Shown here piece by piece: positions 32,412-35,302 of a DNA stretch of 35,302 nucleotides. Positions within the stretch are counted from its first letter, which is position 1. Every line of letters begins with the position of its first letter. The DNA is from Clostridia bacterium. GTDB taxonomy: Bacteria; Bacillota; Clostridia; Christensenellales; Aristaeellaceae. The DNA lies in NCBI GenBank assembly GCA_017532155.1, contig JAFXJP010000033.1:1-35302 (forward strand), written 5' to 3'. The notes beneath the pieces were generated by a model, which did no database searches, was not told the DNA's origin, and saw nothing but the letters and a program-made list of their open reading frames with translations. Made by a program: the position numbers and the translations under genes.

Positions 32412-32441
32412 ACCGCTCCGGATGATCCGGGGCGGTCTTTT
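32412..32441 (+). terminator. Bidirectional terminator between convergent genes
   Basis: ACCGCTCCGGA (32412-32422) pairs with TCCGGGGCGGT (32426-32436), one G-U pair, loop TGA. On the plus strand CTTTTATT follows; on the minus strand a run of seven T follows. It serves both the acetyltransferase gene and the convergent metallopeptidase gene. Confidence 0.9.
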
Positions 32442-32997
32442 ATTGCGGCAGTCTGCGGATGAGCGCAGGGCCGTTTTTCTTCAGCCATAGCTGGCTTTTG
32501 CGGTAATCGGGCACGATTTTTTCTACTTCAGCCCAGAATTTGAATGAGTGGTTCATTTGCCTGAAGTGGCACAGCTCATGGATGATCACGTATTTCTGTA
32601 CTTCGGGCGGGGTGAGCATCAGCAGGCAGTTGAAGCTGAGATTGCCTTTTGCAGAGCAGCTGCCCCAGCGGGATTTCTGATGGCGGATGGTGATGCGTCC
32701 GCAGGATATGCCTAAGTGATTTGCGTAGTATTTGACGAGAGGGATGAAATTTTCTTTTGCCTGATTGGTCAGAGATTCCAATTCGCCGGCGGTAAAGGGG
32801 ATAACAGGCGGCGCGCTTTTGATTTCAAGCAGCTTATTCTCAATCCAGTTTGCTTTTTTGCAAACAATTTCATGAATGGATTTTTCGCTTGCAATTAGCG
32901 GGCAGCGCACCTCCACCATGCCGTCAGGCAGGATGCGTATGCTGACGGATTTGCGGCGGATGCGGATGATCTGATAAGAAAAAGAAAGCTCCTGCAT
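32440..32997 (-). CDS. YgjP-like (DUF45) metallopeptidase
   Basis: A 185-residue YgjP/DUF45-type protein. The zinc motif is His140-Glu141-Leu-Cys-His144, followed by His150 in MNHSFKFW, the layout expected for this family. The middle sequence KSRWGSCSAKGNLSFNCLLML is also diagnostic (split as KSRWGSCSAKGNL and SFNCLLML). The family is predicted to be zinc peptidases; some members are encoded with restriction-modification genes, but none is present here. GAGGAG precedes the ATG and a good promoter lies upstream. Confidence 0.92.
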   Translation of the reverse strand: MQELSFSYQIIRIRRKSVSIRILPDGMVEVRCPLIASEKSIHEIVCKKANWIENKLLEIKSAPPVIPFTAGELESLTNQAKENFIPLVKYYANHLGISCGRITIRHQKSRWGSCSAKGNLSFNCLLMLTPPEVQKYVIIHELCHFRQMNHSFKFWAEVEKIVPDYRKSQLWLKKNGPALIRRLPQ

Positions 32998-33049
32998 GGC
33001 GTCTCCTCAAAAAAATAATTGGACTGGTTGAAAACCGCCCAACAGATAC

Positions 33050-33078
33050 ATCATAACACAAGAAAACCGGCTTGTAAA
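33050..33078 (-). promoter_or_regulatory. Sigma-A promoter of the metallopeptidase gene
   Basis: On the minus strand TTTACA (33073-33078), 17 bases and TATGAT (33050-33055), with a TG extension. Five of six bases match in each box. Confidence 0.85.
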
Positions 33079-33164
33079 GGGTTTGAATATAATTTCTCCC
33101 TATTGCAAAAAACGCTCCTGTGAAACTTTGGACATTCTGCCGTCTATGCAAAATGGTGCAGGTA

Positions 33165-33173
33165 TGGTATATT
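33165..33173 (+). promoter_or_regulatory. Extended -10 promoter of the putative non-coding RNA
   Basis: TGG followed by TATATT (33168-33173); TATTAT two bases on is an alternative. No good -35 is present at the expected distance, so recognition would lean on the TG extension. The transcript would begin near 33180. Confidence 0.5.
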
Positions 33174-33242
33174 ATAGACACAAGGAAGAGGTGATACCAG
33201 TGAACAGGTAAAACCCCCGGGGTTCAGAAATAGATAACCAAA

Positions 33243-33381
33243 GGACCAACGGAAGCAAAAAAAGCAAGTAGGACCGACGAAAGCTAATTGAGCCAGTAGG
33301 ACCGAATCAAAAACAAGAAGCAGGTTGGACCAACGGAAATCTAAAAAAAGGCTGAACCGACAGACGGAAGCTTTCAGAAAA
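33243..33381 (+). repeat. Five degenerate 28-base units with GGACC core
   Basis: GGACC begins at 33243, 33271, 33299 and 33327, exactly 28 bases apart, and a diverged copy (GAACC) begins at 33354. The consensus is GGACCRACGGAARC, about seven variable A-rich bases, then AGCAAGTA. Because 28 is not a multiple of three, the periodicity is not that of a protein repeat. Confidence 0.85.
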
Positions 33382-33535
33382 GAAAGATTTCAAGAAACCC
33401 TTCCAAGGCGCAAAAGTGCGAAAGGATCGTGTAAAGAAACGATCAAGAGGGAAGAAAGCAGGAAATGAGCTGAAAGAGTCCGGCTGAATCTGTAGAAAGA
33501 GAGGTTGACTATATAGTGGATATCAAGATAGCAGC

Positions 33536-33593
33536 GAAATAACCCTTGGCGGTCAAAGTGATTAGTTGAACCGTCAAGGGTTATTTCATTTTT
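33536..33593 (+). terminator. Strong terminator of the putative non-coding RNA
   Basis: GAAATAACCCTTG (33536-33548) pairs perfectly with CAAGGGTTATTTC (33575-33587). A GGTCAA/TTGAACC inner stem with a bulge extends it. ATTTTT follows. It has no upstream protein gene on this strand, so it implies an RNA product. Confidence 0.92.
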
Positions 33594-33607
33594 GGGGGTA
33601 AAAAGGA

Positions 33608-33636
33608 ACGAGCAGCCGAAACTGCCCGTGTTTTTT
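33608..33636 (+). terminator. Second, bidirectional terminator before trxB end
   Basis: ACGAGCAG (33608-33615) pairs with CTGCCCGT (33622-33629), one G-U pair, loop CCGAAA, then six T on the plus strand. On the minus strand TCCTTTTT follows, so it can also terminate trxB. Confidence 0.82.
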
Positions 33637-34573
33637 ATTTTTGGCTGTCTACATAGCTGCAGGCAGCAACTGCGGCAACTGATCCATCCGCCGCAGCCGT
33701 GGTCAGCTGGCGAACGGTCTTGACGCGGCAATCGCCCGCCACGAAGATGCCAGGCACATTGGTGCGGCAATCTTCACCTGCTACGATGAAGCCCTGCGCA
33801 TTCAGATCGATCAGGCCACGGAAGGGCTCGTTATCCGCCATGCGGCCGATGCACACGAACAGGCCTTCTACCGGCAGGGCAGATTTTTCACCTGTTTCGG
33901 GATTGGTCAATTCAACGCCGGTCAGCTGGTTTTCGCCCTCCAGCGCGGTGACCTGACGGGACGTAAGCAGGCGGATATTGCTGCGCGCCTGCATGGCGTC
34001 GATCTCCTTTTGATCGCAGGTAAAATGATCAAACAGCTGAACAACGGAAACGCTCTTGCACAGATCGCTGAGGAAAACGGCCGCCTGCGAAGCGCTGTTG
34101 CCGCCGCCGACCACGGCCACATCCTGGCCCTTGTGGAAGGCGCCGTCGCACAGCGCGCAGTAGGAAATGCCATGGCCCACCAGCTGCTCCTCGCGCTCCA
34201 CGCCCAGGGGGCGGTGCTTGGCGCCGCTGGCGATGATCACCGCCTTGCCGGTAAACTGCTTTTTGCCGGTGTCGGCCACGAAAAGATCAGCTTCCTTGCG
34301 AAGCGATACGATCTCTTCCAATTCGATTTCTGCGCCCAGATCCAGTGCCTGACTGAGCAGCGCATCGGTCAGCTGATTGCCGCTGACGGCGGGAATGCCG
34401 GGGAAGTTATCCACGCGCGGGGAAGAAGTGATCTGCCCGCCGAAGGTTTCCTTCTCAATGATCAGCGCGCTCTTGCCGGCGCGGAGGGCATAAAGGGCGG
34501 CGGTGAGCCCTGCCATACCGCCGCCGATGATGAGAATATCCGCAGAGGGTGTATTCATCATAAAGTGATTCAC
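33635..34573 (-). CDS. Thioredoxin reductase-like flavoprotein
   Basis: A 312-residue FAD-dependent reductase of the TrxB family. The FAD fold is at about 13-22 (ILIIGGGMAG) and ATGDC-like FVAGDCR near the C-terminus. The redox pair is Cys139-Ala-Leu-Cys142. The second dinucleotide motif GGGNSASQAA is present. The NADPH-specificity motif, HRRxxxR in E. coli TrxB, is absent; the aligned stretch reads VVQLFDHFTCDQKE. NADH, ferredoxin or another donor is therefore possible. The start is a GTG at 34573 overlapping the reductase stop in GTGA; an in-frame ATG at 34561 is an alternative. Its likely client is the redoxin domain encoded directly upstream. Confidence 0.92.
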   Translation of the reverse strand: MNHFMMNTPSADILIIGGGMAGLTAALYALRAGKSALIIEKETFGGQITSSPRVDNFPGIPAVSGNQLTDALLSQALDLGAEIELEEIVSLRKEADLFVADTGKKQFTGKAVIIASGAKHRPLGVEREEQLVGHGISYCALCDGAFHKGQDVAVVGGGNSASQAAVFLSDLCKSVSVVQLFDHFTCDQKEIDAMQARSNIRLLTSRQVTALEGENQLTGVELTNPETGEKSALPVEGLFVCIGRMADNEPFRGLIDLNAQGFIVAGEDCRTNVPGIFVAGDCRVKTVRQLTTAAADGSVAAVAACSYVDSQK

Positions 34574-35302
34574 GCTTTCTGATAAGTTTCGATAAAGCCC
34601 TTGATGTTGGAGGCGTTGGCGTACAGCGTAGTCTGTCCGCCGGAAATCACCGCCAGCGTGGGCGCCTGCTGCACACCGTATTCACGGGTGAGGCCGGCGT
34701 GCTCTTCCGCATCAATCTTTTCGTAGGAGATACCGGCCTTATCCAGCAGCATGCAGGCCATGCGGCAGTTGGGGCAGGTCTTGGTGGTGAACAGCAGCAG
34801 ACGATCCTGCTGGGGCGCGGCCACGGGAGTAGGCACGGATACGCCTTCGCCGGACAGCGGGCCAACGTGGGTCAGCTTGGAGTTGGCAATGTTGTACACC
34901 TTGCGATCCTTGAACTCCTGAGACTTGCCGGTGTTCCAGTTCTGCACGGGGCGATAGTAGCCGGTGATGCGGCTGTAAACCTCGGTCTTGCCGCCGCACT
35001 CGGGGCAGGTGTACTGTTCGCCTACGAGATAACCATGGTTCTTGCACACGGAATAGGTGGGAGACATGGTGTAGTAGGGCAGGCGATAGTTCTCGGCGAT
35101 CTTGCGGACCAGGGTGGCCGCGGCGCGCCAGTCAGGCAGCTTTTCGCCCAGGAACGCGTGGAACACGGTGCCGGAGGTGTAGAGGATCTGCAGTTCGTCC
35201 TGGATGTCCAGCGCGCTGAAGATATCCTCAGTGTAGCCGACAGGCAGATGAGAAGAGTTGGTGTAGTAGCTGTCGCCGTTCATGTTGGCGGTGATGATGT
35301 CG
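34570..35302 (-). CDS. nrdD: Anaerobic ribonucleoside-triphosphate reductase with C-terminal redoxin domain (C-terminal part)
   Basis: The C-terminal 240 or so residues of a class III ribonucleotide reductase; the frame is open to the window edge. Visible NrdD features are SSHLPVGYTEDIF, YTSGTVFHAFLGE, a zinc site (SVCKNHGY and TCPECGG) and the glycyl-radical region SRITGYYRPVQNWN. After a short Pro/Ala/Gln linker there is a complete glutaredoxin/thioredoxin-like domain (RLLLFTTKTCPNCRMACML, CPNC active site, cis-proline in QAPTLAVI). NrdD makes deoxyribonucleotides without oxygen, using a glycyl radical installed by NrdG. The fused redoxin suggests it is reduced by thiols rather than formate. 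Its stop overlaps the reductase start, so both proteins are made together. Confidence 0.93.
   Translation of the reverse strand, partial: DIITANMNGDSYYTNSSHLPVGYTEDIFSALDIQDELQILYTSGTVFHAFLGEKLPDWRAAATLVRKIAENYRLPYYTMSPTYSVCKNHGYLVGEQYTCPECGGKTEVYSRITGYYRPVQNWNTGKSQEFKDRKVYNIANSKLTHVGPLSGEGVSVPTPVAAPQQDRLLLFTTKTCPNCRMACMLLDKAGISYEKIDAEEHAGLTREYGVQQAPTLAVISGGQTTLYANASNIKGFIETYQKA

What the first reader, a model, noticed from the sequence alone, without database searches (positions are those of the whole stretch)
33165..33593. A roughly 410-nt structured non-coding RNA with no recognised family
The region has a promoter-like extended -10, no plausible protein gene, and a strong terminator with nothing else to terminate. 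Between them lie several independent helices, among them a three-way junction (33400-33454) and a 7-bp long-range stem (33221-33227 with 33352-33358). The size and ornate layout recall large clostridial RNAs such as raiA, OLE or ROOL, yet I cannot match it to any of them from memory.
Basis: partly seen in the sequence, partly recalled or inferred. Interest (0 to 1): 0.82.

Follow-up and report, generated by a model that had tools for sequence, protein, structure and literature searches.

The report
Stand-alone RNA with two mini-ORFs
The stretch is one copy of an RNA family that the RNA library does not list, common in one group of gut bacteria; its two ends carry tiny start-stop reading frames kept by evolution, so it probably works by engaging ribosomes rather than by making a protein.

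Summary
Relatives show a family: 122 of 136 genomes of one genus match, 112 of 400 of that genus's family, 6 of 300 of the window's own family, and only the window's genome of 398 across the phylum. The middle (GGACC repeats, long-range stem, three-way junction) is the least conserved part and almost absent in some copies. Conserved are a divergent promoter pair, Shine-Dalgarno 1 with a 2-3-codon ORF1 (window GTG AAC AGG TAA, 33200-33211), Shine-Dalgarno 2 with an ORF2 of about 8-9 codons (33516-33542), and an 18-bp hairpin whose 5' arm holds the ORF2 stop codon. The hairpin covaries (12 of 18 pairs), and at the stop it changes among TGA, TAA and TAG with one TGG exception, so pairing and termination both seem selected. 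No particular gene lies downstream. Most likely a stand-alone regulatory RNA whose level or 3' end is gated by translation of ORF2; that mechanism is inferred, not shown.

The parts
33050..33078 (-). divergent promoter TTTACA-17-TATGAT, facing the YgjP-like gene
   Evidence: a divergent promoter of at least 9/12 in 67 of 76 copies, 14.8% of shuffles
33021..33040 (-). hairpin just after the divergent start (GGGCGGTTTTCAACCAGTCC), then T-rich; attenuator or early terminator of the divergent transcript
   Evidence: read and the alignment; in 45 of 76 copies a terminator within 75 nt, 0.33% of shuffles (the window's own copy, with a bulge, is not scored as a terminator by that script)
33094..33139 (+). 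two upstream boxes (family consensus TTTTgcACAA and TTTTaTACAA, 22-23 bp apart), degenerate in the window; putative activator site
   Evidence: 46 aligned promoters, 9 others left out for lack of an anchor
33165..33173 (+). extended -10 TGGTATATT; start of transcription expected near 33180 (inferred)
33188..33195 (+). Shine-Dalgarno 1 (GAGGTGAT)
   Evidence: complementarity to the 16S rRNA end is recalled, not tested on this genome
33200..33211 (+). ORF1, GTG AAC AGG TAA (fM-N-R)
   Evidence: 2-3 codons in 77 of 81 copies with the box, 28 distinct short sequences
33221..33227 (+). 5' strand of the long-range stem GGTTCAG
   Evidence: unchanged in G143; predicted
33242..33338 (+). 28-nt direct repeats with GGACC(A/G)ACG(A/G)AAGC core
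   Evidence: absent from G143
33352..33358 (+). 3' strand of the long-range stem CTGAACC
33361..33486 (+). helix 33361-33377/33470-33486 enclosing the three-way junction
   Evidence: I2; in G143 the changed positions stay or become paired, by one-sided changes only
33494..33505 (+). Shine-Dalgarno 2 (AGAAAG-A-GAGGT)
33516..33542 (+). ORF2, GTG GAT ATC AAG ATA GCA GCG AAA TAA (fM-D-I-K-I-A-A-K)
   Evidence: frame with stop just before CCC in 86 of 88 copies; stop in the hairpin arm at the same place in 22 of 23 loci
33536..33587 (+). terminator-like hairpin, arms 33536-33553 and 33570-33587; 5' arm holds the ORF2 stop codon 33540-33542
   Evidence: 18 pairs, 12 with compensatory change, 99.0% of cells paired
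33589..33593 (+). U tract TTTTT after the hairpin
   Evidence: at least 6 T in 10 follow the hairpin in 82 of 114 copies

Best explanation
It is one copy of a stand-alone RNA gene family of gut Clostridia. The RNA starts close to a strong Shine-Dalgarno site with a 2-3-codon frame, carries an optional structured cargo of very variable length, and ends with a second Shine-Dalgarno site, a frame of about 8-9 codons and an intrinsic-terminator hairpin whose 5' arm contains that frame's stop codon. Supported by comparison: the family, both frames, the covarying hairpin, the promoter pair, the lack of a dedicated downstream gene. Inferred: a ribosome finishing ORF2 sits on the base of the hairpin, so translation opens the 3' hairpin (read-through or exposed 3' end) while loss of translation lets it close, so that the terminated RNA accumulates when translation is impaired; ORF1 holds a ribosome at the 5' end without letting it run through the cargo. 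The RNA would thus report translation status, with the cargo as the acting part where there is one.
For: Family and distribution. ORF1: 2-3 codons in 77 of 81 copies with many different codons (MYR, MYT, MI, MW, MKK, MTS, MQR) and all three stops. ORF2: 86 of 88, 28 of the 29 loci (in the 29th, L155, the box was missed by the pattern but the frame is seen), and 22 of 23, where many hairpin sequences are quite different (CCCGGAC, CCTGTACC, GCCGATCC). The stop varies as TGA 87, TAA 19, TAG 8 with matching changes in the opposite arm (columns 57/156 and 58/155). Neighbouring genes differ; 24 of 59 are on the other strand, and so is the trxB-like gene of the window. Strong SD sites near a 5' end are known RNA stabilisers in bacteria without RNase E (PMC3997798, passages).
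Against: No expression data. With no gene downstream, read-through would have no obvious product; a second terminator within 98 nt is found in only 42 of 114 copies and may serve neighbours. ORF2's peptide is not wholly free: an acidic residue stands at position 3 in all 70 distinct 30-nt ORF2 sequences and at position 2-4 in the divergent ones, and TTA, GAT, AAG are almost fixed, which gating alone does not need. Copies almost without cargo (13-14 nt from the ORF1 stop to the second SD box in L161 and L163; L195, L199 alike) leave the acting part unknown. In at least two divergent copies a base of the stop codon is unpaired or mismatched in the hairpin (L180, L199, by eye). Whether a ribosome can reach ORF2's stop before the polymerase leaves the terminator is not known. 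Copies are related and were found with models built on these columns, so counts are not independent events.
Confidence: 0.38

Rival explanations
1. Ribosome-guarded stable RNA: SD1/ORF1 blocks 5' exonuclease, SD2/ORF2 with the hairpin blocks decay from the 3' side; the mini-ORFs merely park and recycle ribosomes so that the cargo in between stays folded and long-lived.
For: SD1 lies about 8 nt from the expected start in the window (start inferred); strong SD sites near the 5' end stabilise RNA in bacteria lacking RNase E, even without a start codon (PMC3997798, passages); the interior differs between copies, about half sharing one hairpin.
Against: Stabilisation does not need start and stop codons, still less a stop fixed inside the hairpin arm; copies almost without cargo exist.
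Confidence: 0.25
2. Minigene-like sink: frequent initiation on the 2-3-codon ORF1 gives peptidyl-tRNA drop-off and ties up tRNA or ribosomes, a brake on growth (like the lambda bar minigenes, recalled).
For: Strong SD plus ORFs such as M-I-stop, M-W-stop and M-Y-R(AGG)-stop; several copies in many genomes.
Against: ORF1's last codon is not restricted to rare codons; ORF2 and its hairpin are unexplained.
Confidence: 0.13
3. Cis-acting attenuator for the gene downstream, as in antibiotic- or amino-acid-controlled leaders.
For: Leader-type anatomy: small ORF whose stop meets a terminator; 35 of 59 neighbours on the same strand (crude ORF calling, 57 of 116 copies skipped).
Against: 24 of 59 neighbours are on the other strand, as is the trxB-like gene of the window; no recurrent gene seen in that list; some same-strand neighbours have a promoter-like sequence of their own (SUG784, L070, by eye).
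Confidence: 0.05
4. Regulatory RNA activated by a LytTR-type response regulator, like VR-RNA under VirR or RNAIII under AgrA, acting by base pairing; mini-ORFs secondary.
For: Tandem boxes 22-23 bp apart just upstream of -35 resemble the layout of VirR boxes (PMC2838878, PMC4963840, passages); stand-alone RNA of similar length; 13 of 16 carriers tested have a LytTR protein, the window's genome three.
Against: Box sequence matches the VirR motif only in part; carriers G523, G563 and G588 show no LytTR protein, while non-carriers G643-G649 have 7-15; LytTR is common anyway, 43 of 48 genomes.
Confidence: 0.1
5. Purely untranslated RNA; the boxes are protein-binding motifs that look like start and stop codons.
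For: TTA, GAT and AAG of ORF2 hardly vary.
Against: ORF1 varies in its codons yet ends after 2-3 in 77 of 81 copies; the hairpin positions at the stop hold stop triplets, one TGG apart, in the 88 copies.
Confidence: 0.04

Closest known systems
Leader-peptide attenuators (e.g. rli53/lmo0919, whiB7/wblC, ilvB leaders)
   Same: Short ORF upstream of a conditional terminator (PMC11550727, passages).
   Different: Here two mini-ORFs, stop codon inside the terminator arm, no dedicated gene downstream, several copies in many genomes.
STAB-SD and other 5' stabilisers of Gram-positive mRNAs
   Same: Strong SD near the 5' end (PMC3997798, passages and reference titles).
   Different: Start and stop codons are conserved too, and a second SD-ORF sits at the 3' end.
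VR-RNA (C. perfringens) and RNAIII (S. aureus)
   Same: Stand-alone RNAs of a few hundred nt with tandem regulator boxes upstream and, in RNAIII, a small ORF (partly recalled).
   Different: Co-occurrence with LytTR proteins is imperfect; interior not conserved; ORFs of 2-3 and about 8-9 codons.
Dual-function small RNAs (SgrS, SR1 type; recalled)
   Same: Regulatory RNA that also carries a small ORF.
   Different: The encoded peptides here are very short and variable, so unlikely to be the product.
raiA, OLE, ROOL, GOLLD
   Same: Large stand-alone RNAs of Clostridia and relatives (recalled).
   Different: No Rfam match; conserved ends and variable middle.

Membership tests
raiA / OLE / ROOL / GOLLD or any other Rfam 15 family | match to the covariance model | tested here: not met
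   0 matches in the window at gathering; 5 far sub-threshold ones at E up to 10 in 32900-33800; 20 related loci at E up to 0.1: six mir-2363 hits and one EF3314_EF3315 hit, all far under their cut-offs
6S RNA | match to RF00013 | tested here: not met
   the genome's only 6S match is elsewhere, G000:C50:3879-4070, 41.1 bits, E 5.2e-7, under the cut-off of 46.4
tmRNA / tRNA | ARAGORN prediction | tested here: not met
   0 genes in L001, L033, L034, L035
CsrB-type CsrA decoy | csrA in the genome | tested here: not met
   PF02599 not found in G000, 82.5% complete, despite 11 GGA in the element
Leader-peptide attenuator | small ORF abutting an intrinsic terminator | tested here: met
Leader-peptide attenuator | dedicated downstream gene on the same strand | tested here: not met
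   window: trxB-like gene on the other strand; 24 of 59 neighbours on the other strand
VR-RNA / RNAIII type (LytTR-activated) | tandem direct repeats about two turns apart upstream of -35 | tested here: met
   sequence agreement with the VirR motif only partial
VR-RNA / RNAIII type (LytTR-activated) | cognate LytTR regulator in carriers | tested here: inconclusive
   present in 13 of 16 carriers tested, not found in G523, G563, G588 (drafts, so absence is not certain); also present in most non-carriers
Type III toxin-antitoxin RNA | tandem repeats with a toxin gene right after the terminator | tested here: not met
   repeats in the window, but the next gene is trxB-like on the other strand, and the repeats are absent from G143
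STAB-SD 5' stabiliser | longer RNA half-life with ribosome bound at the SD | not testable with these tools
   needs RNA decay measurements

The most novel reading that the evidence does not exclude
A new class of RNA device in gut bacteria: a chassis of two non-protein mini-ORFs and a stop-codon-in-terminator hairpin that couples ribosome engagement to the fate of an interchangeable RNA cargo, present in several paralogous copies in many genomes, so that ribosomes act as regulators of a non-coding RNA rather than as its readers.
Probability: 0.3. Interest if true: 0.9.

Novelty: new variant of a known kind. Interest (0 to 1): 0.74.

Why it matters
One genus of gut Clostridia carries this RNA in 122 of the 136 genomes searched, with up to 8 matches per genome (some matches may be reverse-strand echoes of the palindromic hairpin), and Rfam 15 named it in none of the 20 related loci tried. 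Its conservation pattern is unusual: start and stop codons and a terminator are kept in register, while most of the peptide and the interior drift. If translation gates the RNA, it would be a stand-alone sensor of ribosome activity and would show that leader-peptide logic exists detached from any gene.

Tried and rejected
CsrA decoy (GGA motifs): no csrA found. 6S RNA: the candidate is elsewhere in the genome. tmRNA/tRNA: none. Phage or plasmid origin: no match of the window's copy in phages or plasmids, no match of two exact patterns in IMG/VR and one with a third (L099). LytTR/VirR control: layout fits, co-occurrence is imperfect. A fixed place beside the YgjP-like gene: in the 6 other genus members where that gene was found a fuzzy pattern saw no element. 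A query to the plasmid collection used wrong coordinates of L075, covering only the 3' end and the downstream gene; it still led to Vescimonas fastidiosa, and its Parabacteroides hit is a flavin reductase gene, not a member. The first DNA search listed 79 of 150 genomes at E up to 1; below 1e-6 only the own genome, G143 and G045, the rest being short stretches that I took for chance, not each examined. Pattern hits without a 3' box were treated as chance: L042 and L044, L008/L037, L011, L026, L039; L040 has only a poor 3' box, 43 nt on. Literature searches (listings seen) showed no description of this RNA; the 3161 intergenic candidates of PMC8040213 (passages only) could not be checked, since supplements are not open here, so it may be among them.

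Rows dropped: from 90 R1 matches the two weakest (L139 134-221, and L089 1469-1559 on the reverse strand of a member) before the counts on 88. L138 fails my SD pattern but by eye has the same ORF2; L098 reads through at TGG. L152, L153, L154 and L157 are copies already in the first set, so the 114 are not all distinct (74 distinct ORF2 sequences). L200 is the same copy as L158, and L155 was without a box found. In one search three ORF1 pattern hits (L181, L189, L190) were judged spurious for lack of an SD; 13 of 23 have a credible ORF1, 11 of them 2-3 codons, two (L182, L198) 8 codons. In one search, 29 of 88 copies have no 5' box in the stretch examined; ORF1 counts do not cover them. Some of the weakest of the 46 hairpin matches (4-5 mismatches) are probably chance.

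Full report
What was given. The finding is a 410-nt structured RNA at 33165-33593 with a promoter-like start, no protein gene and a terminator with nothing to terminate. The region lies between a YgjP-like metallopeptidase gene on the minus strand (32440-32997; the name is my reading of the sequence, NCBIfam gave no family) and a thioredoxin-reductase-like gene on the minus strand (33635-34573; TIGR01292 at 313.4 bits against a cut-off of 343.45). No ORF of 60 aa or more lies on its plus strand.

Check of the observation. Rfam finds nothing in the window at gathering thresholds, and up to E=10 only five far sub-threshold hits. The stretch 33180-33600 folds with z -7.15 and, without the terminal hairpin, 33180-33531 with z -3.41. 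Direct repeats of 28 nt with a GGACC core occupy 33242-33338.

Relatives. A DNA search of 150 genomes of the family gave, below E=1e-6, the own genome, G143 of the same genus and G045 of another genus; the other matches, up to E=1 in 79 genomes in all, are short. Aligned, these copies share only their ends: the 5' box GGTGATACCAGTGNACAGGTRA and a 3' part from AGAAAG.GAGGT to the hairpin. In G143 the repeat domain is replaced by about 30 nt, yet the long-range stem GGTTCAG/CTGAACC is kept. G045 carries two copies in tandem, each with its own promoter and hairpin, and a third cut by a contig edge.

Size of the family. A covariance model of the 3' part (R1, 5 sequences) found matches at E<=0.01 in 122 of 136 genomes of SUG784's genus, up to 8 each, and in 6 of 300 genomes of the window's family, in 3 of 50 genera. 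Some matches are reverse-strand echoes of the palindromic hairpin, so matches overstate copies. A second model from 88 copies (R2) matched 112 of 400 genomes of SUG784's family and 1 of 398 across the phylum, the window's own; these large scans used stricter filters that lose weak matches. Vescimonas fastidiosa MM35 (Oscillospiraceae) has a copy on pMM35_01 between a TetR gene and spoVAC. One genome, G1385, has five copies within about 3 kb. The family thus looks lineage-bound, and the window's copy sits in a family where it is rare; whether by transfer or by loss elsewhere was not tested. Twenty related loci gave no Rfam family either.

The two mini-ORFs. In 88 copies (the two weakest of 90 matches left out) an SD-like box AGAAAG.GAGGT is followed 5-10 nt later by ATG or GTG and a frame of 8-10 codons that stops directly before CCC of the hairpin in 86. 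Of the two others, L138 was missed by the SD pattern though its frame is there by eye, and L098 has TGG. In 29 further loci 28 had the box and all 28 the frame (four of them repeat earlier copies). Pooled: 114 copies, 74 distinct ORF2 sequences, stops TGA 87, TAA 19, TAG 8; codons 4, 6 and 7 change amino acid freely, while TTA, GAT and AAG hardly vary. The best test is 23 loci, 20 of them taken from the low-scoring end of the list: 22 have the stop inside the hairpin arm in the same place although the arm sequence has often changed, and the peptides differ widely (MTDFKRDRK, MEPTFEAE, MIEPKHFEK, MRDPNIHHG), with D or E at position 2 to 4 as the main constant; in L197 the stop comes two codons later. 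ORF1 is even clearer: of 81 copies with the 5' box 77 have a frame of 2-3 codons, in 28 different sequences and with all three stops; the divergent set adds 11 of 13. Copies without a recognisable 5' box (29 of 88) are outside this count. Neither peptide looks like a product; what is conserved is above all the act of starting and stopping.

The hairpin. On 86 distinct rows the 18-bp helix is paired in 99.0% of cells; 12 of its 18 pairs show changes on both sides, and slid controls for the whole structure fall to 31-53% paired. The alignment was fitted to this structure, so the numbers lean towards it. Pairs at the stop codon change G-C to A-U in 19 rows (column 57) and A-U to G-C or G-U in 7 (column 58), keeping a stop triplet with the one exception above. 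A shorter outer helix between CCAAGA of ORF2 and the U tract is weaker (84.7% of cells). A U-rich tail of at least 6 T in 10 follows the hairpin in 82 of 114 copies, so it is probably a terminator; the window has 5 T.

The middle. From the ORF1 stop to the second SD box there are only 13-14 nt in L163 and L161, and L195 and L199 are similarly short (29-32 nt from the 5' box, ORF1 included, to the start of the 3' model); other copies have several hundred. About half of the copies (46 of 88, up to 5 mismatches, the weakest doubtful) share a hairpin with loop GCU and stem such as UCCC/GGGA or UCUC/GAGA, whose arms covary: 37 of 44 distinct segments form at least 4 pairs, against a mean of 23 and a maximum of 28 in 200 partner shuffles. 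The window's middle is of another type; only G143 shares its 3' part.

The promoter side. Forty-six aligned promoters (9 more could not be anchored) share an extended -10, a -35 and two boxes (TTTTgcACAA, TTTTaTACAA) 22-23 bp apart upstream of it. Further upstream a divergent promoter scores at least 9/12 in 67 of 76 copies (14.8% of shuffles), followed within 75 nt by a terminator in 45 (0.33% of shuffles). The box layout recalls VirR boxes (PMC2838878 and PMC4963840, passages read), but co-occurrence with LytTR proteins is imperfect: 13 of 16 carriers tested have one, G523, G563 and G588 show none, non-carriers G643-G649 have 7-15, and 43 of the 48 genomes have some. These are drafts, so absence is not certain, and I do not file it there.

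What it most likely does. Downstream genes differ and 24 of 59 clear neighbours are on the other strand (crude ORF calling, 57 of 116 copies skipped, the window's own among them; its neighbour is on the other strand), so it is hardly a leader of a gene. The strict place of ORF2's stop inside the terminator arm points to an interplay of the ribosome with that hairpin: a ribosome ending ORF2 would keep the hairpin open. I therefore favour translation-gated termination or decay of a stand-alone RNA, with ORF1 as a 5' anchor. Guarding the RNA ends by ribosomes is the next best; strong SD sites near a 5' end stabilise RNA in bacteria lacking RNase E (PMC3997798, passages). None of this is shown by expression data, and the match of the SD boxes to this organism's 16S rRNA was not tested.

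Comparison and novelty. Each element has a precedent: leader ORF plus terminator, SD stabiliser, dual-function RNA. The combination, detached from any gene, in several copies with interchangeable interiors, matches none that I found (search listings), with the caveat that large candidate lists such as that of PMC8040213 could not be opened. I call it a new variant of a known kind and leave the bolder reading as the novel case.

Noticed in passing
window 33021-33078 (-) and the upstream side of other copies: The divergent promoter is often followed almost at once by a terminator-like hairpin with a recurrent leader (AAATTTGTTGGGC or similar). In the window and in L085, L088, L089 it precedes a gene start, elsewhere it may make only a tiny RNA.
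   Followed up: partly
window 32440-32997; L048, L088, L089: A YgjP-like metallopeptidase gene lies divergently upstream of the element in the window and G143 and, by likeness of the predicted protein, in two loci of the other group.
   Followed up: partly
window 34570-35283 (-): The ORF next to the thioredoxin-reductase-like gene joins the C-terminal part of an anaerobic ribonucleotide reductase (NrdD) to a glutaredoxin/thioredoxin-like domain; it lies at the window's edge.
   Followed up: no
L202 (G1385:C56:18500-23000): Five copies of the RNA within about 3 kb on one strand, a local array.
   Followed up: no
L086 upstream of the element's 3' part: A long purine-rich middle with imperfect repeats (read by eye, not measured).
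   Followed up: no
G643-G650, relatives of SUG784 without a match: Eight non-carriers with consecutive handles; seven of them (G643-G649) have 7-15 LytTR proteins, more than any of the 16 carriers tested.
   Followed up: no
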